Below, piece after piece: positions 19,999 to 62,516 of a stretch of 64,000 bases of DNA. Every line of letters begins with the position of its first letter. Within the stretch, counting starts at the first letter, position 1. The notes beneath the pieces are model-generated. The model ran no database searches. It was not told the origin of the DNA and worked only from the letters and a program-made list of their open reading frames with translations. The position numbers and the translations under genes were made by a program. Source of the DNA: Chondrosia reniformis (Eukaryota > Porifera > Demospongiae > Chondrillida > Chondrillidae); the NCBI GenBank assembly GCA_947172415.1, contig OX359194.1:4340001-4404000 (forward strand). The letters are read 5' to 3'.

Positions 19999-21552
19999 TA
20001 TACTAGGTGTATGTACTATTCATATATACTAGTTATATGTGTATGTACTAGTTATATGTACTATTTATATGCAGTACTTATGTGTACTAGTTGTATGCAC
20101 TAATTTTATGCACTAGGAGTATGTACTAGTTTTATGTACTAGTGTATGTACTATTATTAGGTATACTTAATAGTTGTATGTTGTAGTTGCATGTAGTAGT
20201 TGTATGTACGAATTGTATGTACTGGTTGTATGTATATATTACTTGTATGTCCTAGCTGTGTACTAGTTGTATATACTAGTTTTATGTGGTAGTTTTATGT
20301 TCACTTTCTATGAACTGGCTGTATGTAGTAGTGTCTTGTTGTTCGTACTAGTTGTATTCATGAGTTTTATAATCTCTTTCTATGTACTAGTTGCATGTAC
20401 TAGTTTCTAGCTAGTTGTGTGCACTGGTTGCGTGTACTAGTTGCAAATATTGCTTGTATGTCCTAGTTATATATACTAAGTATATGTACTATTTATATAT
20501 ACTAGTTATATGTGTATGTACTGGTTATATGTACTAGTTATATGCAGTACCTGTGTGTACTAGTTGTATGTACTAATTTTAGGTCTAGTTTTATGTACTA
20601 GTTGTAGATACTAGTCGTATGTACTAGTTGTAAGTTATAGTTATATGTACCAGTTGTATGAAGTAGTTTTATGTACTAGTTGTGAGTTATAGTATGTACT
20701 CGTTGCTAGTGTTATGTACTAGTTGTATGTACTAGTTGTATGAACTAGTACTAGTTATATTTACTCGTGGAAGATACTAAATGTATGTACTAGTTTTATG
20801 AACTAGTTTTTTGGACTAGTTGATTGTACTAGTTGTATTAAGTAGTTATATTTACTAGTTGTATGAACTAGTAACATGTACTAGTTTTATGTACTTGTAC
20901 TAGGTTTATTTACTAGTTGTAGGTAAAAGTTGTATGTACAGGTTTAATGTAATAGGTGTATGTACCAATTCTATGTTCTAGTTGTATATACTAGTTATAT
21001 GTACTAGTTATGTTGTAGTTGTTCGTGCTAGTTGTATTAACTAGTTTTATGCACTATTTATGTACTAGTTGTATGAACTAGTTGTAGGTACTATTACTGG
21101 TAAAATTAAAGAGTTGAATGTACTACTTTTATGTACTAGTTATATGAACTAATTAAATGTACTACTTACTAGTTGTATGTACTAGTTGTATGTACTAATT
21201 GTATGTTCTGGTTGCATGTACTATTTTTATGTACTAGTTATATGTCCTAGTTATATGTATAAGTTACTAGTTATAAGTTCTAGTTGTACCTTCTAAATGT
21301 ATGTACTAGTTTTACGTACTAGTTGTGTGTACAAGTTGTAGGCACTAGTTGTAGGTACTGGTAATATTAACAAGTTGTAGGTACTACTTGTATGTACTAG
21401 TTATATGTATATACTAGTTTTATGTACTATTTACTAATTGTATGTACTAATTGCATAGTCTGGTTGGATGTACTAGTTGTATGAACCAGTAATATGTACT
21501 AGTTGTCTGCACTAGTATATTTTATATTCACTCGTTGAAGATACGAAATGTA
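19999..21552 (+). repeat. 13-bp minisatellite array
   Basis: Forward array. 20190-20430 repeats a higher-order block also seen at 15130-15350. I see nothing else in it. Confidence 0.95.
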
Positions 21553-21766
21553 CGTAGAATATATACGATACGTAAATCAATTAAGCCAAAGGATGCTATA
21601 ACCAATTTAACAATGGACGGTTTTAAATTCCTTCCAGTGTGTAACCGATAACACTAAATAACGCATTCACTCTTAACGATTGAAATCGAAAATTCCTTAT
21701 TAATTAGCGCTTGTTACGTGTTGATCGCTATAAGGCAGCCTATCCCTAAGGAACAGCCATAAGGTA
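21553..21766. other. Unidentified 214-bp insert
   Basis: Non-minisatellite sequence interrupting a higher-order block whose uninterrupted version can be read near 13430. It contains inverted words around ACACTAAATAACG and CCTTATTAATTAG but no long ORF, no obvious terminal repeats and no known ribozyme core. Confidence 0.5.
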
Positions 21767-23001
21767 CCAGTGTACTAGTTGTAGGTGCTAATTGTATACA
21801 TTAGTTGTATGTCTTATGTACTAGTTGTGTGTTCTAGTTGCATGCAGTAGTTGTGTGTACTAGTTGTGTGTACTAGATTTAAGTACAAGTACTAATTATG
21901 TTTGCTAGTTGTAGGTACTAGTAATATTTCCTTGTTGTAGGTTCAAGTTTTATGTTCCAGTTGTGTGCACTAATGGTAAGTAAGAGTAACTTGTTGTATG
22001 CTCTATATAGTTGTGTTTTTAGTTATATGTATTGGTTGAATGTACCAGTTGTATGTACTAGTTACTAGTTCTAGTTATATGTACTTGTTGTATGTATTAA
22101 GTATATGTACTAGTTAATGGATTAGTTGTATATACTTGGTGAATGTACTAGTGGTGTGTACTAGTTGTATGAACTCTAGATGTATATACTAGATGTATAC
22201 TAGTTGTATGTACTAGTTGTAGTTCTAGTTTATGTTCTAGTTGCATACACTATTTATATGTACTAGTTACCTGTGTATGAATTTGTTTTTGTTGCAGTTG
22301 TGTTTATTAGTTTTATGTACTAGTTGTGTGTACTAGTTGTAAGTATTAGTTGAACGTTATAATACTAGTTATACTAGGTGCTAGGTGGGTACTAGTTGTA
22401 TGTACTAGTTGTATGGACTAGTTGTATGTACTACTTGTTTGTACTAGTTGTATGTACTAGTATGTACTCGATACTCGTTGTATTTACTAGTTGTAAGTAC
22501 TAGTTGTAGGTTCTAGTACTAGTTGTACTAGGTATTAGATAGGTTCTAGTTGTATGTACTAGTTCAATGTGCTAGTTGTATGTTCTAGTTTATGTTCTAG
22601 TTGTATATACTATTTATAAGTACTAGTTCCCTGTGTATGGACTAGTTTTATGTAGTAGTTGTGTGTACTAGTTATATGTGTATGTAATATGTATATATAG
22701 TAGTTGTATGTACTAGCTGCATTGAATAGTTATAGGTTCTAGTACTAGTTATAGTGGTTACTAGGTGGGTACAAGTTGTATGTACTAGCTGTTTGTTCTA
22801 TTTGTATGTACTATGTATATGTGTATGTACTAGTTATATTTAGTAGTTGTGTGAACTAGGCGTATATACTAGTTGTTTGTACTAGTTATATGTACTAGTT
22901 GTATGTACCAGTTGTATGCACCATTTATATGGACTAGTTGTATATACTAGTTGTAAGTACTAGCTGTAAGTTCTAGTACTAGTTTATACTAGGTACTAGG
23001 T
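21767..23001 (+). repeat. 13-bp minisatellite array
   Basis: Forward array with variants of the AGTACTAGTTATACTAGGTAC block. I see nothing else in it. Confidence 0.95.
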
Positions 23002-23197
23002 TGGTATGGCGTAATACGTTCCAGTGATTATTTCTGATCATTTTAGCCTTTACACAGGCTTAGTGCAATTAACTCCCTTTGTCAATGTGAGTGCTCAGTC
23101 TCACTTAGACTGTAGCCTCCATCCTCACTTAAAATGAAACCACAAATGGTTTCACTTGTGGTGGATTTATAAGTGAGGGCAGTCATCCTATTTACCA

Positions 23198-23264
23198 TCA
23201 TTGAAGTGTACCACACTGATGAGCCCAAACGAGGGCGAAACAGCTGTCTGTGGTTCTTTGATGA
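23198..23264 (+). ncRNA. Hammerhead ribozyme, type I, apparently intact
   Basis: The core CTGATGA is at 23216-23222 and GAAA at 23237-23240. Stem II is GCCC 23223-23226 with GGGC 23233-23236 around loop AAACGA. Inner stem I is ACCACA 23210-23215 with TGTGGT 23249-23254. An outer stem I, 23198-23206 with 23256-23264, pairs all nine positions including two wobbles, separated by a small internal loop of the kind that docks with loop II. Stem III is the palindrome ACAGCTGT ending in the GTC cleavage triplet, so cleavage is predicted after C23248. The very short palindromic stem III suggests activity as a dimer or multimer, as in other animal hammerheads. Confidence 0.88.
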
Positions 23265-23318
23265 ATTTTTTTCCATCTTCGGATGACTGGGAGGCGATCA
23301 CTGGTTGCCAACTTAATA

Positions 23319-23364
23319 GGACTTCGGTCCCCCAGCCAAGATCAGACTTCGGTCACTTGGCTGG
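23319..23364 (+). other. Two TTCG-loop hairpins in the hammerhead unit
   Basis: GGAC-TTCG-GTCC (23319-23330) is a perfect C(UUCG)G tetraloop hairpin. Next, CCAGCCAAG (23332-23340) pairs with CTTGGCTGG (23356-23364), enclosing a second GAC-TTCG-GTC hairpin (23345-23354). Such stable folds fit a structured RNA element. Confidence 0.75.
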
Positions 23365-23402
23365 TATGGCGTAATACGTTCCAGTGATTATTTCTGATCA
23401 TT

Positions 23403-24600
23403 GTATGTACTAATTGTATGTACAAATTGTATATACTAGGTGTATGTAGTAGTTGTATGTTCTAATTGTTTGAACTAGTTCTATGTACTAATTGTATATA
23501 CTAGTTATATGAACTAGTTTTAAGTACTAGTAGTATGTACTATGTGTGTTTAGTAGTTGTATGTTCTTATTATTTGAACTAGTTCTATGCACTAATTGTA
23601 TGTACTAGGTATGTACTAGTTACTAGTTTCTAGTTGTATGTACTAGTTGTAAAGTATTAGTTGTATGAACTATATGTATGTACCAGTTGTTGTTTCTTGT
23701 ACTACTTATACTGTATACTAGGTAGGTTCTAGTTGTATGTACTAGATACTTGTTGCATGTATATACTAGTTGTATGAACTAGTTTTATGAACTAGTTGTG
23801 TGTGCTGCTTATATGTACTAGTCATATGTACCAGTTACATTTACTAATTTTATGTACTAATAGTGTGTACTAGTTATATTTACTAGCTGTATGTACTATT
23901 TGTATGTAGTAATTGTATGCACTAGTTGTATGTACTAGTTGTATGTACTCAATACTATTTGTATGTACTAGTCGAATGTGGTAGTCATTTGTTCTAGTTG
24001 AATGTATAAGTAGTGTGTAATTGTTGTATGTACTAGTTATATGTACTAGTTGTATGTACTAGTTGTGTGTACTATATTTATGTACTAGTTATATGTGTAT
24101 GTACTAGGCATATGTAATAGTTATATGTACTAGTTATATGTACTAGTTGCATTTACTAGTTGTATGTACTAGTAGTATATACTATTAGTAGGTTCTAGTC
24201 CTAATTATACTAGCTACTAGGGAGGTACTAGTTGTATATACTAGACACTAGTTGTATGAACTAGTTGTACGTACTAATTGTAAATACTAGTTGTATGAAG
24301 TAGTTGTATGTACTAGTTGTATGTACTAGTTTCATGTACTGGTTATATGTACTAGTTAATCATTGTGTGAACTAGTTGTACGATCTAATTGTAAATACTA
24401 GCTGTATGAACTAGTTGTTTGAATATAATAGTTGTATGAACTAGGTATATATACCAGTTTTATGTACATATTAGTTGTATGTACTAGTTTCTAGTTGCAT
24501 GTACTAGTTTTATGTACTAGTTATATACACTATATGGATGCACTATTCATATGTACTAGTTATATATTTATGTACTAATTATATGTTGTAGGTGTGTACT
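23403..24600 (+). repeat. 13-bp minisatellite array
   Basis: Forward array. 24340-24600 is a higher-order block shared with 45490-45760, 50830-51090 and 51440-51710. I see nothing else in it. Confidence 0.95.
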
Positions 24601-25675
24601 AAAAAAGGGACTACCTATAAGTACCTAGGGCTAGAACAACTGTTTGAGGTAGATGACAGCAAGGTCAAAGCTTGCTTGATCAATGAATTGAGGAGGAGAC
24701 TCCACAAAGTGTGGGGCTCTCACCTCAATGGTAAGAATGCTGCAGAAGCCTCTAACATGTTGTGTGCCTCTCTATTGAGATACTCTTACCCAGTTTTGAA
24801 GTGGACTCAAAGTGAGCTTCCAAAACTGGACAGAATGGTGAGAAAGATCATGAGAAAGTACCAGTGTCATCACTATAACTCTGCCATTGAAAGAGTGAAT
24901 TTGCCTCACTCTCAAGGTGGTAGAGGGCTCTGTAGTTTTCCTTTGGATCACAACAGGGCTGTTGTGAATCAGGCAAGATACCTCCATACTGCCAATGATC
25001 CACTCATAGCTGTTGTGGTTAAACACCAAAAGTGGCTGGAGTGCTCAAAGCAGAGGAGGACTGTCTTGAAAGAAGCCAGATTGATACTGAGAAGCCACGG
25101 AATAGAACCTGAACTGGAAGTGTGGCTGAAGACAGATCCCTCACAAAAGAGTGTAAGAGAATGGAGGAGAGTGGCACGTGAGCTCCGGGAGGCTCAGACT
25201 AAAAAGTTAAAAAGTAACCTAGCCGAAAAGTCTCACCAGGGCTCATACCACAGACAAGTCACAAATAGGGAGTCTTATGTGTGGCTTTCTGAGGGGAGAC
25301 TCAGACCTCAAACTGAGGCTCTGATTCTCGCAGCCCAAGATGATGTGCTGCACACTAGGTGGTACCAAAATAGGATTCTGAAGAATTCTAGTCTCCTAAT
25401 GTGCAGAGAATGTGGCAAGGCTATGGAAACGGTCAAACACATTCTTAACATGTGTGAGCCCAAGGGATTTTCTCTCTACAAAGAGAGACATGACTGGGCA
25501 ATACTGATAGTGTTGTGGAGACTGTTGAAAGAATATGGATTCAAGCAGGAAGAGCCCTGGTACAAACTAGAAGCAAAACCAATCTATGAGAATAGGGCTG
25601 TCAAAATCTTGTGGGATCCTAGTATCCCTACAGATGATGAAATGACAGAAAGAAGGCCACACTTACTGGTTGAAT
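24601..25675 (+). mobile_element. R2-group LINE, copy 3 (truncated at both ends)
   Basis: It matches copy 4 from about 58194 to 59255. The 5' truncation joins a minisatellite word that reads uninterrupted elsewhere. The 3' end stops inside the endonuclease, exactly where the minisatellite changes orientation. Confidence 0.92.
24601..25675 (+). pseudogene. LINE RT thumb, CCHC knuckle and partial endonuclease
   Basis: An uninterrupted frame encodes the RT thumb from YLGLEQ, the linker, the CCHC knuckle (CRECGKAMETVKHILNMC) and the endonuclease up to RRPH, where copies 1, 2 and 4 have RRPD. The Asp of the catalytic PD pair is therefore His here. After LVE the frame runs into inverted minisatellite and ends at 25746 in low-complexity residues. 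The absence of stops over about 350 codons suggests a fairly recent insertion. It cannot work, because RT core and endonuclease catalytic residues are missing. Confidence 0.88.
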
Positions 25676-32488: not shown

Positions 32489-32604
32489 ATTATATGTCCT
32501 AATAGAATAAGGATTCCTTATAACTGCGTCGAACTTATCTTTGGGATGGTACATCCTTCGATTTTTTGAGCGTTTAAAAACGCAGTTGGTTTTTTCAATT
32601 CTTG

Positions 32605-32641
32605 GTCAAACGTTTCGACCCTGGGGGTCTTCCTCAGTGAC
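32605..32641 (-). ncRNA. Hammerhead-like relic in left terminal repeat of PLE A
   Basis: Minus strand: CTGAGGA, a GACCC/GGGTC stem, GAAA, then CGTT. GTCA/TGAC could serve as stem I. There is one extra A before stem II, and stem III would be only the palindrome ACGT. It matches the hammerhead core but is probably inactive or needs dimers. Confidence 0.45.
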
Positions 32642-32670
32642 TGATGGTTGAGTGGAAGAATTGCCTCTAT

Positions 32671-33066
32671 TTATAGAGGATTTTTCCCGCCATTCCCACT
32701 TCCTGTCATGTGAACCTCAGCAGAATGAGAAAAACAGGAAGTATGAATATTAAATCGTCTCCAGGCTTGATGTAACACAATGCCTTGATCTAAATTCATT
32801 CTCACCTGACTCCTCTGGATCCTGATGGCTTCTTTGACCCTTCTCCTTTGCCAGTGGGTTTCCCTGTCTGTAATCTTGGCCTTGTCCCAAACAATTGAGT
32901 GGCCAGTCTTGAGGGAGTGAACAGCTATACCGTTGTTCACATCCCCCCTCCTGACTGCTCGCTTGTGTTCTGCCAATCTTACTTTCAGGGTCCTTCCAGT
33001 TTCACCAATGTAGACTGCAGAACACTCAGAGCAAGGAATTAGGTAAACTACACCCTTGATATCCAT
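32671..33066 (-). pseudogene. Inverted duplicate of the PLE A GIY-YIG domain
   Basis: 131 codons on the minus strand duplicate the last part of the main ORF, from MDIKGVVYLIPC to the terminal stop, with a few substitutions. It includes the GIY-YIG signature VYLIPC and VYIGETGRTL. It belongs to the inverted terminal copy and has no RT attached, so it is not an independent gene. Confidence 0.85.
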
Positions 33067-33094
33067 AGGTGGTTGTGGCTGTTTTGGTTTGGAT

Positions 33095-35495
33095 TTGGTT
33101 CATTATGCTATGAGCTTAGAAACATCAAGGAACGTATTGCCCGTCATCGCAACCATCTTGTTTTCTTTCTCAGATGTAGGGACAAGAAGATTGTACCTAA
33201 GGGACTACGAGTTCAGTTTCAGATCACTACGGAAAAGGCCAAACGGCTCGCGTTTCGCACGTCAATGGCCTTAGTACGTGAACGTATCGGCGCCACCCGC
33301 TGGACTCTCCATCGCTCTAGAACTCATTTAGCATCCTGTGAGGAGTCCTTAAAGATGTTAGTCAATGATGAAACCTTCTATAAATTAGAAGAATGGAGCG
33401 ACAGTATAGCTGAAAGGACCTTCCAGGAGACTAAAAAGAGACAGAGGGAGAAGTTCCAGGCCCTGTTGGAAAAAACATCCAGGAAAGATAAGTTCACACC
33501 TATTGACATTAAGAAGGTGGTTGTCAATCTTAGCAAAAAAGAATTGACAACTCATCAGACAAATGTCTTATCTCTAGGACTAAACTTTATACCTACTCCA
33601 TCTTCACTTCCACAGGAGGACATCATCACTGGAACTGAGACTCTTGCCCGAACCCTTCCAGGAACACTCGGTGAGAAACTCAGAAGTGAGGTACAACACT
33701 GCCTAGCCAAAGCTGAGGCCCCATGCTCCAACCTGACCAAAAGTCAGCAAGTAGCAATCAAGGAGCTTAGGTCTGATCCTGAAACCATCATCCTTCCAGC
33801 GGATAAAGGGAATGCCACTGTCCTTATGGATAGGAAGGACTATGACCAGAAGATAAGGCACTCTTGGATGATACGGGTTATCAAGCCATTAAGAGAAACC
33901 CCACAATGAAGATAGAACGGAAGGTAACTGAAGTTCTAAGGTCACTTGAGAAAAAAGGCAAACTCCCCTCTGATCTAAGGAAGAAGGTTCAGAACCAAAA
34001 CAGCTCCACACCTCAGCTCTACGGATTACCAAAAATCCACAAGGCAAGTGTACCCTTGAGACCAATTGTTTCCTCCATTAATTCCCCTACCTACAACCTT
34101 TCCAGGTACCTGGCAGGGGTATTGTCACCACTATGGGGGAAAACTTCTCACTTTGTGCGGAATTCTCATGACTTTGTCAAGAAGATCAGGGGAATGGATG
34201 TGAACACCGAAGATAAGTTGATCAGTTTCGATGTAAAGAGCCTATTTACCAAAGTACCCATTGATCTATCTCTACAGATCATCAGGAGACGACTTGCGCA
34301 GGACCCTAACTTGGAGCAACGGACACCCTTGGATGTATCCACCATTGCGGATCTTACGGAACTCTGTCTCAGGACAACGTACTTCCTGTACAGTGATGAG
34401 TTCTTCGAGCAGAAGGAAGGGGCAGCCATGGGATCTCCTCTCTCCCCGGTGGTAGCGAACATCTTCATGGAGGAATTCGAAATAGAAGCTCTTCGTGCTG
34501 CTGTGATAAGGCCTAAGTTGTGGTTGAGGTATGTGGATGACACATTTGTCATCTGGAATCATGGTGACGAGCAGCTGGAGGACTTCTTGAGTTTCCTCAA
34601 TGGAAGACATCGCAACATCGAATTTACCATGGAGAAGGAGACCAATGGTTCCTTACCCTTCCTGGATGTGCAAGTAAAGAAGTGCATGGGAAGTTTGGAC
34701 ACATTTGTGTATAGGAAACCAACACACACAGACAGGTACCTTCACTTTACCTCTCATCACCACCCTAGGGTAAAAACTGGTATCGCACTGTGTCTCAAAG
34801 ACAGAGCCGAAAAGATCTGTGGACCAAACTCCAGTAGCTTGGAAAAAGAAAAGGAGCACCTGGAAGGAGTACTTCAAGCTAATGGATACCCTAAATGGGA
34901 GGCTCACAGACTGCTCAACAGGAGAAGGCAGACTAAGGGGAGTGAGGATGAGTGTAAACACAAACTCTTTATTCCATATATAAAGGGACTCAGTGAGATG
35001 ATCGATAAAAGCTGTAGAAAAATGGGTATCCAGACCATTTTCTCCAAGCAGAGATCACTGAGTACCGTTTTATCCAAACCAAAACAGCCACAACCACCTA
35101 TGGATATCAAGGGTGTAGTTTACCTAATTCCTTGCTCTGAGTGTTCTGCAGTCTACATTGGTGAAACTGGAAGGACCCTGAAAGTGAGATTGGCAGAACA
35201 CAAGCGAGCAGTCAGGAGGGGGGATGTGAACAACGGTCTAGCTGTTCACTCCCTCAAGACTGGCCACTCAATTGCTTGGGACAAGGCCAAGATTACAGAC
35301 AGGGAAACCCACTGGCAAAGGAGAAGGGTCAAAGAAGCCATCAGGATCCAGAGGAGTCAGGTGAGAATGAATTTAGGTCAAGGCATTGTGTTACATCAAG
35401 CCTGGAGACGATTTAATATTCATACTTCCTGTTTTTCTCATTCTGCTGAGGGTCACAAGACAGGAAGTGGGAATGGCGGGAAAAATCCTCTATAA
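33095..35495 (+). pseudogene. Penelope-like RT with C-terminal GIY-YIG endonuclease (one frameshift)
   Basis: The coding region spans two frames. The first (to 33909) holds the PLE N-terminal region, from LCYELRNIKERI, to the ILPADKGNATVLMD motif. A one-base loss near 33860 moves the reading to the second frame (33864-35495, 543 codons). This holds LYGLPKIHK, SFDVKSLFTKVPI, GAAMGSPLSPVVAN and the YVDD active site (residues 223-226 of that frame), then YRKPTHTDRYLHF and a GIY-YIG domain from about residue 415. Elements of this group prime reverse transcription at nicks made by the GIY-YIG nuclease. Apart from the frameshift I see no stop, so it is a young copy. The N-terminus may be shortened by the head-to-head junction at 33094. 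Confidence 0.92.
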
Positions 35496-35524
35496 ATAGA
35501 GGCAATTCTTCCACTCAACCATCA

Positions 35525-35561
35525 GTCACTGAGGAAGACCCCCAGGGTCGAAACGTTTGAC
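35525..35561 (+). ncRNA. Hammerhead-like relic in right terminal repeat of PLE A
   Basis: The plus-strand mate of the left relic: CTGAGGA 35529-35535, stem GACCC/GGGTC, GAAA 35550-35553, candidate cleavage after T35557, stem I GTCA/TGAC. It has the same reservations: an extra A and a stem III without a loop. Confidence 0.45.
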
Positions 35562-35639
35562 CAAGAATTGAAAAAACCAACTGCGTTTTTAAACGCTCAA
35601 AAGTCGAAGGATGTACCATCCCAAAGATTATATGTCCTA

Positions 35640-41769: not shown

Positions 41770-44137
41770 AGGTAGGCCAGGGTAATTTCGGAAACACTTC
41801 AGGTATATTGTGTATGGTATGACAGCAAGTTCAACAAATTTCCTAAAACTCGCACAATAGGAGGACAAACCTGTCCTCTCAAGACGCACAACTTTTCAAG
41901 CCAACAGCAATATCGCCGATGAAGAGCGCTCCATTTTCTTAACTACGCCGAAAAACATCACTTCCGGTTAATTTCGGAAACTAATTACAAATAGAGGTGA
42001 CGGTAAAAAACAATGTCGGATCACTCTGGAAAGTTCAAAAAAGGTAATATTTACAAGTCTGTTTGCAAAAGTTGGGTCATTGGGAGCTGCAGATAAGGCA
42101 GTACCCCTCTTCACTTACTTCAGGTAGGCAATCAAACCCAACACACTGATAGTGGTACCACCTCCAACAAGAGTCACACCCCACGCAGTCTTCATCATTA
42201 TTAAAGCAGTCACCACAAGAGAAACAGTGCTCAGTGTCCTTGTCCTCTTCAGTCTCTACATCAGTGTGATCCTCTTCTTTATCAGTGTGATCCTCTTCTT
42301 CATCAGTGTCTTCATGGTCAGTGGCTTTGGGTTTGGAAGCCTTTGTCCTTGCTGTGGATTGTGTCCTCTTCCCCTGTCTCACTGCTTTTCTTCTTCCTTT
42401 CTTTACACATTTTCCCTTTGCAGCTTGCTTAGTCATTTTCTCTTTCTCTGCCTCCTGCATCCTCTGTAGTACTTCCTCTTGCGTAAGAGCTTCCCCAAAG
42501 TGGTGTATCTTCACACGCTGTCATCTGGTGGGTGTTGGTTGCTTCTTTGGATGGAGGTAATTAGCAAAAAAATGTCGCAGCGCTGCACGGAGTGGTGTTA
42601 CTGCAGTACTAGTACCACTGTGTGATGTGGAAGTTGCAGCATCAAATGGTATTGATGTTGCAACTTTGTGGCTCTGAATAGCTGATGGCTGCAGTGGGTA
42701 GAGACCACATTCCCGAAAGGCAGACTGGAAGTGACATGGCTTGAATGCGTTGGTGCAGAGAGAGTGTACCAGGGATGGAAACACCTCTTTAGTGATGCAG
42801 GCTGCTCTTGTTTGCAGTTTCTATGTTTTCATGATAGATTTCCAGGCTGCCTTTGCGGGTCCGAAGACTCCCACATCCAGTGGTTGCAGGACATGTGTGG
42901 TGTCTGGCGGCAAGCAGTACAGTCAGATGTTCTTTGCCTTGCATGTTGCGATTAGCTGCACTGAAAGATGGGAATGATGCCCATCAAAAAACAGAACAAC
43001 AGGACCAGTTTCCAGATATGGCTGCACTTTGGGGATGAACAACTTATTCATCCATGACAGAAAGTTCTCCTTTTCCATCCATCCTGATGGAGAGCTACCG
43101 TACAGTGCACCTGGTGGTCCATGGCGGGTCCATGAAGTGTATAGGTTTTTGCCCTTATAGACAATGTATGGTGTTAGCATTTCACCAGTTGCAGAGCCAC
43201 ACATGTGTACAGTGATGTTCTCCCTGCCAGATCCACCACCCGTTTCATGAACCCACTTCGACCCTCTCTTAGCAAAGACGTGCTGTGACCCTCTGCTGTG
43301 TTGAAGCAGGTTTCATCGCAGTTCCAAACCCTGGATGCCATGTCTGGGTAGCTGGTGAGTTTCAGCTTCTTATACAAGCTGTCGATGTTCAGGAAGATGC
43401 CAGAGATGGTGGTGGGGTTGGCTGAACTGGCTCTTTTGGTGGAGAGGTGTTGCGCTTTCCCGGAAACAAGCTTTGGCCACCTCTTCAGAAACCCACTCCA
43501 CCAGTCCCATCCGGGTCGGCCACTGGCGAAAGGATGATCTCTCTTTTGTGCGTGCAGGTAGTCGATAACGATGGAGGATACAATTTCTTTTGTCAGTCCA
43601 TACCCTATTTCCTGCAAGACCTGGCAGCAATACACTATTTCTTCCTCTTCTGCATAGGTCGGCACTGTTGGTTTTCCTGCCCCTACCTTCTTAACCTTAC
43701 CCCTTACGTGATCATGTAGTGTGGACACTGGAATGCCATATTTCTTTGATATGGCATTTATGGATGCCTTCCCCTTCAACCTTGCTACCTCCTTCAATGC
43801 AGCATCTAGCTGCTGCTTTGACCATTTAGGCATGTCCCAGAGGTGATAATCAAATTACCGTGCAGTACTCACTCAGCAATTCAAGCGTTCCCGCCAACCA
43901 CAACGAAGTTTCCGGTAAAAACCGCAAAATATGCAGTGACGTTAGCTTCAAAATGGCGTCGCGTCGACTCTTGCGTAGTTCGTTTCGCGCAGTTTAAGTC
44001 TCGAACTTGAGAGCGAGTCAAAGGTAAGCCCGAATATTAAAACAAAGTTTAACTTAATCCTGTAGTCTTCAGCCTACAAGCATATATGTTGCACATTTCC
44101 GGAATTACCCTGTTTCCGGAAATACCCTGACTTACCT
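41770..44137 (-). mobile_element. pogo-type (Tc1/mariner superfamily) DNA transposon
   Basis: It is 2,368 bp long and flanked by TA on both sides (41768-41769, 44138-44139). Imperfect terminal inverted repeats of about 27 bp begin AGGTAGGCCAGGGTA on the left and AGGTAAGTCAGGGTA on the right, read inward. It contains one damaged minus-strand transposase gene. Confidence 0.92.
42077..43833 (-). pseudogene. pogo/Tigger-like transposase with PHD-like C-terminus
   Basis: From the ATG at 43833 the protein has a psq-type helix-turn-helix (residues 4-48), a CENP-B-type helix-turn-helix (about 60-125), and the first catalytic Asp in NCDETCF (near 170). A frameshift near 43258 moves to the frame holding the second Asp (FFDGHHSH) and third Asp (LQPLDVGVF, near 42860), about 35 residues apart. 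In-frame stops lie at 42923-42925, 42821-42823 and 42521-42523. The C-terminal part (42514-42077) is basic, then acidic, and ends in a Cys/His cluster (CFSCGDC, CDSC, WYHYQC, CLIC) resembling a PHD finger. The gene is dead. The domain order matches pogo-group transposases of invertebrates. Confidence 0.9.
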
Positions 44138-56042: not shown

Positions 56043-59000
56043 AAGCAAGGTGCCTCTAGCAAGGTGCCTCTAGAAGGAGAAGGATCCAAGGGGTGATCTG
56101 GAACCTTCAGAGGGATAATATCCTCATGGAGCTCTACCGAGAAAGTAAGCCATGGAAAAGGGGTATGCCGAGTGGTTGTACCAGGCTTGGAATGCTGCAA
56201 TGCCAGACCATAAAACCACAAAGGTAGCACTAACTACAAGACTTAGTAGAATCCGAAGAGGTCAAGGTCTCTCGAGACTAAACCTTGTGGAACCTAACTC
56301 TTGTGGTGTAGCCACCCTAACTGGGACTGTGGAGGAAGGTGTGGGAGCCCAGGGACAGGGGGAGCTTAACCAAGTTCAGGCTAGGACTGAACAAAATGGT
56401 GAGCTGCCTGCAGTCCCTGTTGAAACTCCTACACATGATCATCCCAGTCCCAGGACAAGTTGCAATGATCATCTGATGCAACTTTTAGGCAAAGCAAAAG
56501 ATGCCTGTCTCCGAAAGAAACCTGGAGATTTCTCTGGTAGAAAACCCTGTGGGGGGGTGCGGTTCAACCATGTTGATACGGCACTGCTCCAGGAGGCCAA
56601 TGATTGGGTGGAGAAAGAGTGGCAGGAAGGCCCTAGGTCGGCCTGGCACCTGAACTGCCTGGTCTACTCTGTTGCTATGGCTGCGAGGGGAAAAACAACC
56701 TACGAATCGCAGCCATGCAACCAGGGAAGGAAATCGGACAATCAGAAGGGAAGTAAGAGACAGGAAGGTCACATAAGTGACAGGAAGGCCAAGGGCCTTA
56801 GGTTTAGAAGACTGCTTGCCTGGTTGGATGTGGAAATAGTGCGTCAACAGAATAATAATCCTATGACCAAACGCCAGAAAGTACTCCGAAGAAAGCTTAG
56901 GAGGGAGTTCCATTCATTAAACCTGAAGGTGCTGATCAGAGCTCGGGAACAGACACTGGGGAAACTCAGGGTCTGGACCCTACAAGAGCGAAGATCGGCT
57001 GAACGCAGGAAATTCCAGGAACAAAACCACCTTTGGAATACCTAAAGGAAGTTCCGGATGAATGGCAATGTTCCAACCTCCAATGAAGCTCCCTCAATTG
57101 AGGTAGTAAGGGACTTTTGGACAAAGATTGTAGGTACTGTTGGTAAGGTCAACAAAGACGACCCAGGGGTGAAAGAATGGCTAAAGGAAACCAAAAAGAG
57201 GGTGGGTAGAACCTCCTCTGAAGGTCCCGATAGCATTGATGAGACCAAACTGAGGAAGGCCTTGAAAAAGGCAAAAAGCTGGTCTGCCCCTGGGCCGGAT
57301 GGCATCCACACTTTTTGGTGGAAAGCACTCCCCTCTGCACAGTCTGCCTTGGCAGATGTACTACGGAGGGTGGTGAGCAGAGATCTGTCAGTCCCAGACT
57401 GGCTTACAAGGGGTCGCACTCTACTCATCCCCAAAAAGGGTGACCCGAAAAGTGCGGCCAACTACCGACCTATTGCGTGTCTCAACACAATGTGCAAGGC
57501 TGTCACAGCATACATTGCATCGGAACTACTCACTTACACCTACACTAATGATCTTTTGCCTGTGGCCCAAAGGGCCATGAGGAAAGGGAGGTGGGGCTGT
57601 GTGGACTGTCTACTGCTGGATCAATCAATTGGTCTAGATGCCAAAATTATGGGCAAGCCACTTAGTGTGGCATGGATCGATTATGAGAAGGCATATGACA
57701 GAGTCCCTCACAAGTGGGTGATGAAGGTGCTAAAAACCATCAAGTGCCCAAGTTGGATCAGGAGGTCTATAGAGCTCTTCTCCAAACACTGGGCTACTGT
57801 GCTTGAGTTGAGGACTGCAGGGAAGGTGGTTAGGAGCACCCCTGTTAAATATAACAGGGGACTCTTCCAAGGAGACTCCTTATCGCCACTCCTCTTTTGT
57901 CTGGCCATAGCTCCCATATCCCAAGTTCTTAACAGAACCAAGGGATATACCCTCTGGCATGATGGGGAAAGGAACACCATGTCACACTTGTTGTACATGG
58001 ATGACCTTAAGATATATGCTGGAGGGCCTGATAAACTCAGGGAAGCCATGGAATGTGTGGAGAAAACCTCAAATGCCATTGGCATGAGGTTTGGAGTGAG
58101 AAAGTGTGGAACAGCTCACATGCAAAAGGGGAAAGTTCTGGCTGGCCCAGACAACCCTGAACGCAGTGAAGAATCCATAAGGAGCCTTGAAAAAGGTACT
58201 ACTTATAAGTACCTAGGGCTAGAACAACTGTTTGAGGTAGATGACAGCAAGGTCAAAGCTTGCTTGATCAACGAATTGAGGAGGAGACTCCACAAGGTGT
58301 GGGGCTCTCACCTCAATGGTAAGAATGCTTCAGAAGCCTCTAACATGTTGTGTGCCTCTCTATTGAGATACTCTTACCCAGTTTTGAAGTGGACTCAAAG
58401 TGAGCTTCCAAAACTGGACCGAATGGTGAGAAAGATCATGAGAAAGTACCAGTGTCATCACTATAACTCTGCCATTGAAAGAGTGAATTTGCCTCGCTCT
58501 CAAGGTGGTAGAGGGCTCTGTAGTTTTCCTTTGGATCACGACAGGGCTGTTGTGAATCTGGCAAGATACCTCCATACTGCCAATGATCCACTCATAGCTG
58601 TTGTGGTTAAACACCAAAAGTGGCTAGAGTGCTCAAAGCAGAGGAGGACTGTCTTAAAAGAAGCCAGATTGATACTGGGAAGCCACGGAATAGAACTAGA
58701 ACCAGAAATGTGGCTGAAGACAGATCCCTCACAAAATAGTGTAAGAGAATGGAGGAGAGTGGCACGTGAGCTCCGGGAGGCTCAGACTGAAAGGTTAAAA
58801 AGTAACCTAGCCGAAAAGTCTCACCAGGGCTCATACCACAGACAAGTCACAAATAGGGAGTCTTATGTGTGGCTTTCTGAGGGGAGACTCAGACCTCAAA
58901 CTGAGGCTCTGATTCTCGCAGCCCAAGATGATGTGCTGCACACTAGGTGGTACCAAAATAGGATTCTGAAGAATTCTAGCCTCCTAATGTGCAGAGAATG

Positions 59001-59861
59001 TGGCAAGGCTATGGAAACGGTTAAACACATACTAAACATGTGTGAGCCCAAGGGATTTTCTCTCTACAAAGAGAGACATGACCGGGCAATACTGATAGTG
59101 TTGTGGAGACTGTTGAAAGAATATGGATTCAAGCAGGAAGAGCCCTGGTACAAACTAGAAGCAAAACCAGTCTATGAGAATAGGTCTGTCAAAATCTTGT
59201 GGGATCCTAGTATCCCTACAGATGATGAAATGACAGAAAGAAGGCCAGATTTAGTGGTTGAGGATCGGCTAAGTAAGTCCATCTTCATTATTGAGATGTC
59301 AGTTCCTACTGACAGCAATATTAATGGAAGATGGCAAGAGAAGTTCCAAAAGTACCAGAAGCTGGCAGCTGATATGAGGAAACAATTTAGGGGCTACCGA
59401 ATTAAGGTAGTCCCGATGATAATTGGTGCTTTGGGGACAGTGAGCACGCTCCTGGAAGACCTTAGGGAATTCCAAAGCTGTCAAAAAGTGCAGTAGAAGT
59501 GATGAGAGCCATGCAGAGAACTGTTCTCTGTTCGGCTGTGAGGATATTGAGGCGACATCTATCTGTTGAGGGATTGGGGCCTGGACGATAAGTAGTCCTG
59601 TCCCAGTCCTTGCCTGTCGACCTCTGGAAAGCAGTGGTGGATTGGTGTATGGAGGTACTCCCTCCTATTATGACGGTCAACTTTGGCCCGACGTGCACCC
59701 GTCTGCTGCTGTCGGAAGGAGGAAAAGCCGAGGCTTCTGGCTAAAAACCCAAAGAAAGGAAAACATAACTGACTGAGGGTTGTCCAAGTCAGATACTCCT
59801 TGCCTTAGTACACTAAGGCAAGAAGTAACAAAGTTCTCCGTTAAGGCTTTTGTTTTTCAAG
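56043..59861 (+). mobile_element. R2-group LINE, copy 4 (longest coding copy)
   Basis: 5'-truncated between the two Myb-like repeats, with a 13-bp word (AAGGTGCCTCTAG) doubled at the junction. It is complete to the 3' end (GGCTTTTGTTTTTCAAG), then minisatellite. It contains the full RT, CCHC knuckle and endonuclease and the 3' UTR hairpin (59799-59822). Confidence 0.93.
56044..59591 (+). pseudogene. R2-group LINE polyprotein: RT, CCHC, restriction-like endonuclease
   Basis: One frame runs from the second Myb-like repeat to 59496, broken by a single nonsense codon at 57043-57045 (CAA to TAA by comparison with copy 1). In the 57058-59496 part (812 codons) the RT begins around SAPGPDGIH (near 80), followed by YRPIACLN, IDYEKAYDRVPH, FQGDSLSPLLF and the YMDD box at 313-316. 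Then come the thumb, the CCHC knuckle at 645-662, and the endonuclease with RPD at 729-731 and Glu746 in IIEMSVP followed by KYQKL. A one-base loss in a G run near 59464 shifts the last 40 residues out of frame; the family stop would be 59589-59591. The domain order (RT, CCHC, C-terminal nuclease) is that of R2-group LINEs. I estimate about 1,260 residues for an intact protein. Confidence 0.92.
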
Positions 59862-61108: not shown

Positions 61109-62510
61109 GTTGTGTAATTCTGAAAGAAGTGTTCAGGTACAAGGAACTCTGCTCTATTTACCCATATGGACTTAACGATAACATTAAAGGCATTGGCAAA
61201 ATTTCAAAACTTAAAAAAGAAATCATCGTATGGAACCTTTTTAATCGCTTATCTCATAAAAGACGGCATCAGCGCTCCAATCTAAAATCGTCAGGCAGTA
61301 GTAATAATGCTACCTTTGACCCTGAATGGCTCAAAGAACGACTACCACTTTACAAGAACGTGGGCTTTCTAGCCAAACTTAAAAGCGATACTTTTGCATT
61401 ACAAGCTCGACACCTTCATCGTTTGTTAAACTCGATACAATGTCTCATCAATACCCCAGAAACACTTTTCCGCTTAGACTTATGCTAATGATTAAAGACG
61501 TTATTAAAGTACGCGCTTCAGCCAGCCTTCCCAAACACCCAACGAAAACTACATGTCCAGAAGGGTTTCTTAAAATCGTGTTTCATAATAAAGGTGTAGA
61601 AAAAATAGGCCTCTCAGGTATCTTAAACCAAAAGTTAGTGTTAGAAACTGTCCCACCCTTTATACAAAACAAAGAGCCACCATGTGTAGTATATAAGTAT
61701 ACCCAACCAGTAGGACCTCAAATCTTTAACTTTTCACAAGCCTCTAAGTCAGATGTCTTTAGAAAACCAAAACCATGTGAGTGTCACAAGTCCCCCTTCA
61801 TTTACAAGCCCCTAGGCCATGTTTTAACAGGTGACCTACGTATTGTTAGTAACCCAAAACTTAGAAAGCTTCTTAAGAAAGGACCAAAATTTAGAGAACC
61901 TAATAAGTTTAATTGGGTGACTGCTTTAAAAATGTGTAAGGAAGGTCTTAGAAAATATAAGGTTGACTGGGCCCATAGAGAAAATGTATCTACTTCTGTA
62001 TTGAGTGAGTGGGAAAATGCTGTACTTAGGAAAATTAAAATCTCTAAGCTGCCTAAATTGTATACCAAATCCTCAGTAGCCAAGAAGACCCTTACTTGCA
62101 CTAAAATTAAGAAATTCTTAGCAGACCTACATGATAAATATGTTATAGCCCCTGCCGATAAGGCCTCTAATAATATAATATTTATATGTAAGTCCTACTA
62201 TAGACAAATTATTAATGAAGAACTAGGCAGTACCTCCAATTATTCTAAATGTACAGTAGAACCCCAACAGTTAATTAGGAAACATGTAGATTTCTTAAAA
62301 CTAGAGAACTTAAAACCTAAACCAGACTGGTGTAACCTTCCCTCTTTTTACTGGATGCCTAAGTTACATAAGAACCCTTACAGCTACAGATTCATAGCTG
62401 CCTCTCATAAATGTACAACCAAACCCCTTTCTAGATTTCTAAATTCGGCACTGGGACTCATTATCAAACATTTTAGAGAATACTGCCTAAGTATATATAC
62501 TAGTAAATGT
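61109..62510 (+). pseudogene. GIY-YIG end, linker and partial RT of a Naiad-type element
   Basis: The first frame (to 61488) opens with KELCSIYPYGLND, which resembles the C-terminal end of a GIY-YIG domain, then a basic linker. A frameshift near 61440 leads to the second frame (to 62516). This has a Cys-rich motif KPCECHKSPF, then GHVLTGDLRIV and KGPKFREPNKFNW. RT-like motifs follow: VIAPADKASNNIIF (near residue 235) and FYWMPKLHKNPYSYRFIAAS (near 315). These correspond to LPADKG and LYGLPKIHK of PLE A. Having the nuclease upstream of the RT is the arrangement described for Naiad elements. The palm with its YxDD box is missing. The class call is inference from order and motifs. Confidence 0.72.
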
Positions 62511-62516
62511 ATATAG
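61109..62516 (+). mobile_element. Penelope-like element with permuted domains (Naiad-type), fragment
   Basis: Truncated at both ends. It starts inside a GIY-YIG domain and ends within the RT, where the minisatellite resumes in the opposite orientation. No target duplication is visible, as expected for a rearranged copy. Confidence 0.75.

What the first reader, a model, noticed from the sequence alone, without database searches (positions are those of the whole stretch)
23198..23264. Intact type I hammerhead ribozyme in the minisatellite
All invariant core positions, a 4-bp stem II, a perfect 6-bp inner stem I, an outer 9-bp stem I across a small internal loop, and a GTC cleavage site are present. 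The palindromic stem III is of the kind that works in dimers. Chance assembly of all these parts is very unlikely.
Basis: partly seen in the sequence, partly recalled or inferred. Interest (0 to 1): 0.82.

Follow-up and report, generated by a model that had tools for sequence, protein, structure and literature searches.

The report
Sponge retrozyme with intact hammerhead ribozyme
The self-cutting RNA motif is real; it belongs to a small hitch-hiking genetic element in what appears to be a sponge genome, and its copies look as if a Penelope-type retrotransposon pasted them in, which bears on the open question of how such elements move in animals.

Summary
Window 23210-23254 (+) passes Rfam's type I hammerhead cut-off (RF00163, 35.9 bits, E 2.5e-5). 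The best two-strand fold is a double hammerhead over the palindromic stem III; the best single-strand fold buries part of the core. It is not a minisatellite unit: it lies in a ~360-bp non-coding retrozyme inserted there (about 23003-23402, 1.14 units, one ribozyme). Genome statistics match the sponge Chondrosia reniformis. The genome holds 188 exact ribozyme-pattern matches. In the 40 best-scoring family A insertions (a capped sample), most have head-to-head arms whose outward 3' ends fall at two fixed sites ~42 nt apart; where both ends fall at these sites, 22 of 23 have one of each, and 26 of 28 independent events over families A and B. 19 of 40 have target duplications of 10 bp or more. 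Penelope-like elements (PLEs) here show the same pattern in 4 of 4 with both ends seen. So PLE machinery most likely copies a (probably circular) retrozyme RNA from both target strands. The window copy itself has one arm, no clear duplication and one ribozyme: probably a dead end. Cleavage, circular RNA and the exact PLE partner are untested.

The parts
23210..23254 (+). Type I hammerhead ribozyme: inner stem I 23210-23215/23249-23254, core CTGATGA 23216-23222, stem II 23223-23226/23233-23236, GAAA 23237-23240, palindromic stem III ACAGCTGT 23240-23247, cleavage expected between 23248 and 23249
   Evidence: Rfam RF00163 35.9 bits, E 2.5e-5; pairs counted across 32 distinct copies
23198..23264 (+). 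Hammerhead with outer 9-bp stem I (23198-23206 with 23256-23264) across a small internal loop
   Evidence: fold, -23.9 kcal/mol, z -3.05; double hammerhead is the cofold optimum
23003..23402 (+). Retrozyme insertion, family A: one ~360-bp unit plus a 40-bp second start (1.14 units), single arm, 3' end at the short (S) site; left edge could be 22995
   Evidence: 51-nt direct repeat, spacing 360; 120 matching places in the genome; L070 is this locus
22995..23045 (+). First copy of the 51-nt direct repeat that bounds the insertion
23355..23405 (+). Second copy of the direct repeat (94%); the insertion ends here at the S site
23043..23084 (+). Optional 'tail' between the two 3'-end sites of the family: S after about 23042 (unit position ~40), T after about 23084 (unit position ~82)
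   Evidence: end positions in 40 loci
23045..23060 (+). Small hairpin AGCCT-TTACAC-AGGCT in the tail; similar sequence at the same place in relatives L002 and L005
   Evidence: z only -0.26, so no support from folding energy alone
20040..22977 (.). 13-bp minisatellite left of the insertion
   Evidence: TRF
23401..24565 (.). 13-bp minisatellite right of the insertion
   Evidence: TRF
32502..35626 (+). Penelope-like element: inverted left arm ending at its tailed (T) site, right arm ending at its S site; 13-bp target duplication ATTATATGTCCTA at 32489-32501 and 35627-35639 (read by eye)
   Evidence: (531-nt arms, 99% complementary)
33846..35495 (+). PLE open frame with reverse transcriptase (PF00078) and GIY-YIG endonuclease (PF01541); the type of enzyme proposed to mobilise the retrozyme
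   Evidence: Pfam

Best explanation
It is one copy of a metazoan non-LTR retrozyme. Inferred steps: tandem copies are transcribed; the hammerheads cut the RNA into ~360-nt monomers, mainly as pairs sharing the palindromic stem III; monomers are ligated into circles. Steps read from insertion anatomy: an enzyme of the Penelope-like type cuts both target strands ~12-14 bp apart leaving 3' overhangs. Each overhang primes reverse transcription inside the retrozyme RNA at one of two fixed sites ~42 nt apart (S and T), normally one strand at S and the other at T. The two cDNAs run round the template, sometimes for several laps, and are joined head-to-head. The window copy is a one-armed, single-ribozyme product of this process; its locus exists in two copies on two chromosomes.
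For: Ribozyme real, with paired changes between families. Unit 358-360 bp, 44.4% GC, longest open frame 71 aa. Family A, 40 loci: 22 S+T, 1 S+S, 0 T+T, 5 with one outer end elsewhere, 12 with one arm. Family B unit (354 bp) on 20 loci: 7 S+T, 1 T+T, 4 with one end elsewhere, 8 one-armed. Independent events with both ends at S or T (duplicates removed): 26 of 28 S+T, P 1.5e-6 against free choice. Exact target duplications of 10 bp or more at 19 of 40 A loci against 22 of 1560 mismatched flank pairs, and at 6 of 20 B loci against 3 of 380 (each real count includes loci that are copies of one event). PLEs here: 4 of 4 with both ends in view have one S and one T arm (window, L082, L084, L085); the window PLE has a 13-bp duplication. 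A tail on one inverted repeat and internal initiation at two sites are published PLE features (PMC3846280, passages; PMC11167929, parts 1-2 of 4). Arms of one insertion share variants seen in no other insertion in 8 of 28 two-armed loci. Uninterrupted arms reach ~4.9 units (L024).
Against: The window copy itself lacks the two-armed anatomy: one arm, S end only, no convincing target duplication. 21 of 40 A loci and 14 of 20 B loci show no duplication of 10 bp or more. The loci are the best-scoring ones (40 of 1131 candidates scored), not a random sample. No PLE with the retrozymes' tail sequence was found; S and T sequences of PLEs and retrozymes differ, so the partner is unidentified. 9 of 28 two-armed loci share no variant between arms; most of these have few variants or little overlap, but L057, L059 and L077 carry many unshared ones, as does L031. 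A circular template is not proven: linear multimers would also give multi-unit arms. In vitro, PLE reverse transcription showed no start-site difference between strands (PMC11167929), so the one-S-one-T rule has no known cause. No RNA or cleavage data.
Confidence: 0.82

Rival explanations
1. A retrozyme moved by a LINE-type enzyme. Head-to-head arms would be twin-priming 5' inversions.
For: LINEs are abundant and young here (816-aa RT frame in the window; 40 near-identical 3' ends listed). A 2024 review lists LINEs and PLEs as candidates (PMC11722881, passages).
Against: Twin priming (recalled mechanism) puts the inverted arm's outer end at an internal point, not at the element's own 3' end; here both outer ends are 3' ends at fixed sites. 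None of the 40 scored LINE 3' ends has an opposite-facing partner within 10 kb in that list (only the best 40 of 390 candidates were scored, so this control is weak). No poly-A tail by eye at the junctions printed.
Confidence: 0.1
2. Retrozyme insertion as above, but the template is an uncleaved linear multimer from a tandem genomic array rather than a circular RNA; the ribozyme is dispensable for transposition.
For: Multi-unit arms run through intact ribozymes. For a lizard PLE, ribozyme mutants still inserted in vitro (PMC11167929).
Against: By eye the ribozyme is the best conserved block between families, with paired changes. All units of an array share private variants in L064 and L031; apart from the length of one T-run (L024, L031) none of the five arrays compared mixes variants known from elsewhere. 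Young arrays would also be uniform, so this is weak.
Confidence: 0.3
3. A satellite DNA family or minisatellite unit that merely contains a hammerhead-like motif.
For: The locus sits in a large 13-bp minisatellite and tandem copies exist. 15 of 40 insertions are in minisatellite-rich flanks, and a 4.4-kb stretch with the element is duplicated on C4 at 98.1%.
Against: 25 of 40 insertions have fewer than 8 minisatellite words in 400 bp of flank; many have exact target duplications outside the minisatellite.
Confidence: 0.03
4. A chance or decayed hammerhead-like hairpin without activity.
For: No activity data; the best single-strand fold is not the active fold.
Against: Gathering-level score, 188 exact copies, paired changes, 77 of 101 scanned hits with every core and stem position intact (the 101 include four spurious hits and some ribozymes counted twice where loci overlap).
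Confidence: 0.03

Closest known systems
Metazoan non-LTR retrozymes (Cervera & de la Pena 2020, PMC7229834: abstract, passages and sections 14 and 17 read)
   Same: Type I hammerhead, ~170-400-nt non-coding unit, GC near 45% (A 44.4, B 45.2), dimers to multimers, co-existing PLEs.
   Different: Host appears to be a sponge (no 'sponge' or 'Porifera' in that text). Most sampled insertions are head-to-head with two fixed 3' ends; 'inverted' and 'target site' do not occur in that text.
Amphibian (newt, axolotl) retrozyme hammerheads
   Same: Very short stem III, expected to work as dimers (PMC7229834, passages).
   Different: Here stem III is an 8-nt palindrome with no loop, in an invertebrate; the 2020 paper describes amphibian helix III as shorter than is typical of invertebrates. 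Cleavage unmeasured here.
Penelope-like elements (Adineta Penelope, PMC3846280, passages; Anolis Poseidon PAc, PMC11167929, parts 1-2 of 4)
   Same: Inverted head-to-head arms, optional ~30-40-bp tail on one arm, short target duplications, internal start of reverse transcription at two adjacent sites.
   Different: PLEs carry an RT/GIY-YIG frame and a minimal hammerhead; the retrozyme has no protein and a full type I hammerhead; tails are ~42 nt (A) and ~55 nt (B) against about 32-38 nt by eye in the local PLEs.
Plant LTR retrozymes (PMC4918200: search listing only)
   Same: Ribozyme-bearing non-autonomous retroelement with circular RNA.
   Different: Type III hammerheads in LTRs, Gypsy-type mobilisation (as told in PMC7229834).

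Membership tests
Rfam RF00163 Hammerhead type I | Covariance score over the curated cut-off | tested here: met
   35.9 bits, cut-off 34
Rfam RF00163 Hammerhead type I | Self-cleavage | not testable with these tools
   no wet-lab data
Metazoan non-LTR retrozyme | Non-coding unit of ~170-400 bp with a type I hammerhead | tested here: met
   unit 358-360 bp, longest frame 71 aa
Metazoan non-LTR retrozyme | Tandem copies with two or more ribozymes | tested here: inconclusive
   Not met by the window copy (1.14 units, one ribozyme); met by 8 of 40 family A loci with two or more fully intact ribozymes in one orientation (27 have one, 5 none)
Metazoan non-LTR retrozyme | Expressed as circular RNA | not testable with these tools
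   no transcriptome available here
Dimeric (newt-type) hammerhead | Stem III too short alone; active fold formed by two copies | tested here: met
   in silico only: double hammerhead is the cofold optimum
PLE-type insertion | Head-to-head arms, each ending in a 3' end, optional tail on one arm | tested here: met
   met by the family (22 of 40 A loci; 7 of 20 B rows); not met by the window copy, which has one arm
PLE-type insertion | Short target-site duplication | tested here: met
   19 of 40 A loci with 10 bp or more against 22 of 1560 mismatched pairs; not seen for the window copy
Autonomous Penelope-like element | RT and GIY-YIG reading frame | tested here: not met
   retrozyme unit has no frame over 71 aa; so it is not a PLE

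The most novel reading that the evidence does not exclude
Animal retrozymes are passengers of Penelope-like elements. A hammerhead-made (circular) RNA is reverse transcribed from both 3' overhangs of one target cut, with a near-obligate asymmetry: one strand starts at the S site, the other at the T site ~42-55 nt downstream, implying an asymmetric two-subunit PLE complex. The same asymmetry holds for the PLEs examined in this genome.
Probability: 0.75. Interest if true: 0.7.

Novelty: new member of a known kind. Interest (0 to 1): 0.55.

Why it matters
Retrozymes are among the simplest mobile elements known and a natural route to RNA circles, but which enzyme moves them in animals is recorded as open: the 2020 paper calls PLEs a strong candidate (section read), and a 2024 review still lists LINEs or PLEs (passages). 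The insertion anatomy here points to PLEs and gives precise start sites that can be tested with a purified PLE protein. It also appears to extend retrozymes to a sponge, an early animal branch, and offers dozens of insertions for studying PLE priming.

Tried and rejected
Rfam searches of PLE loci at E 5 found no hammerhead; a simple pattern found the PLEs' minimal ones in the window, L082, L083 and L084, but not in L085-L087. Search for the retrozyme in plasmid records and for a family A ribozyme pattern in viral contigs: no match. The ends of the second RT family (window 61383-62513; L086, L087) could not be resolved: the right sides of both and the left side of L086 run into minisatellite and no informative inverted repeat appeared, so it was neither confirmed nor excluded as partner; Pfam gave no domain over its cut-off for it. 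The second fold (L015:1100-1160) hit the wrong stretch and is not used. Within-array uniformity was too weak to separate circular from linear templates. The Rfam genome search scored only 73 of 11,921 candidates and does not list the window copy, so its 65 matches are a lower bound; likewise the DNA search scored 40 of 1131, so 40 insertions is a cap, not a count of all. Two papers on PLE hammerheads (2014, 2017) are not held. Literature novelty rests only.

Full report
What is there. The window has one match over Rfam's curated cut-offs: RF00163, 23210-23254 (+), 35.9 bits, E 2.5e-5. Stem III is the 8-nt palindrome ACAGCTGT without a loop. The best fold of one copy pairs core CTG with CAG; the active fold written by hand is less stable (-18.7 against -23.9 kcal/mol). 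The best fold of two copies is exactly the double hammerhead at -53.3 kcal/mol. Chance is not a serious option: no core match in 60 random sequences, and no second site in the real window.

Where it lies. The window is G000:C6:4340001-4404000 of a 117,379,552-base genome in 15 contigs. Total length, longest scaffold and the chromosome lengths I could compare agree with the Chondrosia reniformis assembly odChoReni1.1, a demosponge (listing, abstract and passages of PMC12181767; contig lengths). The ribozyme sits in an insertion (about 23003-23402) that interrupts a 13-bp minisatellite and is bounded by a 51-nt direct repeat at spacing 360. So it is one ~360-bp unit plus a 40-bp restart.

The family. 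A DNA search scored the best 40 of 1131 candidates and lists 120 matching places. I clustered 46 of those rows into 40 insertions; the other rows lie by eye in the same clusters. Forty is therefore the cap, not the total. Copies are mostly ~97% alike, with a ~87% subfamily. A second family B has a 354-bp unit with the same stem III; its 20 loci are the best Rfam hits, of which L014 and L015 overlap and L002 and L005 match B only in the ribozyme. L002 and L005 are relatives of A with a similar tail. Exact matches to the ribozyme pattern number 188 (99 forward, 89 reverse; backward control 0). On 32 distinct ribozyme sequences (four spurious hits left out) the structure pairs in 95.8% of cells (shuffles 90.9), with 39 two-sided changes (15.2) and a covariation score of 0.243 (0.141), none reached in 500 shuffles. 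Two measures do not exceed the shuffles: pairs with a two-sided change (4 against 2.9, reached by 82 of 500) and further pair types (10 against 11.2). The signal thus comes from a few pairs that differ between families.

The anatomy of insertions. In family A most sampled insertions have two arms placed head-to-head, so that each arm's 3' end faces outwards. The outer ends fall near unit position 40 (S) or 82 (T). Of 40: 22 have one S and one T, 1 has two S, none has two T, 5 have one end elsewhere, 12 have one arm. For family B, 20 loci: 7 S+T, 1 T+T, 4 with one end elsewhere, 8 one-armed; one of the eight (L009) was scored so because of a stray fragment. L052, L053 and L055 are copies of one event, and L014 and L015 are one place. 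Counting events once gives 26 S+T of 28 with both ends at S or T; under free choice P is 1.5e-6. Exact duplications of 10 bp or more flank 19 of 40 A loci and 6 of 20 B loci, against 22 of 1560 and 3 of 380 mismatched flank pairs. These real counts include L053 and L055, and L014 and L015, and several cases sit in TA-rich or minisatellite flanks. A duplication with both 3' ends primed means staggered cuts with 3' overhangs; this last step is inference.

Link to Penelope-like elements. The window holds a PLE with RT and GIY-YIG domains, 531-nt arms 99% complementary, a tail on the left arm only and a 13-bp duplication. Three more PLE loci with both ends in view also have one tailed and one untailed arm (L082, L084, L085): 4 of 4; a fifth, L083, shows only its right end. 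This fits the published picture: a tail on one of the inverted repeats in Adineta (PMC3846280, passages), and two adjacent internal start sites of reverse transcription in the Anolis PLE, which extends both target strands (PMC11167929, parts 1-2 of 4). The retrozymes therefore carry the PLE insertion signature. The tail sequences differ between PLEs and retrozymes, and the exact partner family was not found. As a weak control, none of the 40 scored LINE 3' ends (of 390 candidates) has an opposite partner within 10 kb in the same list.

Template. Arms of the same insertion share variants absent from all other insertions in 8 of 28 two-armed loci (L024, L037, L058, L060, L065, L072, L074, L079), so both arms often come from one source sequence. 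Nine of the 28 share no variant at all; most of these have few variants or little overlap, but L057, L059 and L077 carry many unshared ones, as does L031, which shares two. Arms of up to ~4.9 units (L024) pass through several ribozymes, as expected of a circle copied more than once, or of an uncut multimer. I favour the circle because metazoan retrozyme RNA is reported to be circular (PMC7229834, abstract and sections), but it is not shown here.

The window copy. It has one arm, one ribozyme, an S end and no convincing target duplication. A circle needs two ribozymes in tandem; 8 of 40 family A loci have them fully intact. The window copy is thus probably a dead-end product. It and at least 4.4 kb around it are also present on C4 at 98.1%, so L063 and L070 are one event.

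Known or new. The element is a new member of the metazoan non-LTR retrozymes. In the papers I could search, no sponge retrozyme and no report of PLE-type ends on retrozymes turned up (listings; the 2020 retrozyme paper has no occurrence of 'sponge', 'Porifera', 'inverted' or 'target site'). I did not open most of the listed papers, and the library lacks most subscription journals, including two PLE hammerhead papers. The PLE link had been proposed from shared features and co-occurrence; the insertion anatomy adds direct, though still circumstantial, evidence.

Noticed in passing
window, about 41 kb of 64 kb; genome-wide: The 13-bp minisatellite (TACTAGTTGTATG) has 23,083 exact 19-mers in the genome, very roughly 12% of it if scaled from this window; the listed hits, the first in order, all lie at 3.86-4.04 Mb of C1, so it may be a pericentromeric satellite.
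   Followed up: partly
window 20985-25412 and L063 (C4:3557623-3562021): A stretch of at least 4.4 kb including the retrozyme is present on two chromosomes at 98.1% identity.
   Followed up: partly
window 35529 (+), 32637 (-), 47075 (+): Minimal PLE-type hammerheads (CTGARGAAGACCC...GGGTCGAAACGTTTG) found by a simple pattern; none reaches Rfam's cut-off, and the first two are missed even at E 5.
   Followed up: partly
window 61383-62516: Fragment of a second RT-like family (110 matches in the genome, open frames up to 1010 aa) without a Pfam domain over the cut-off; by recall it resembles Naiad-type PLEs.
   Followed up: partly
window 57046-59496 and fragments near 5.2-8.0, 16.5-19.7, 24.6-25.7 kb: Young LINE-like copies (816-aa frame with RVT_1; fragments by eye); 40 near-identical 3' ends listed in the genome.
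   Followed up: partly
L079 (C13) and L080 (C14): Left flanks ~90% alike over 137 bp but with different arm types: perhaps two independent retrozyme insertions at the same place of a repeated target.
   Followed up: no
L027 1219-3146: A retrozyme whose tailed end stands 1.2 kb away from the rest, with minisatellite between, like the captured spacers described for Adineta Penelope.
   Followed up: no
window 43174-43854 (-): Open frame with an HTH_psq domain, perhaps a pogo/Tigger-like transposase fragment (recalled).
   Followed up: no
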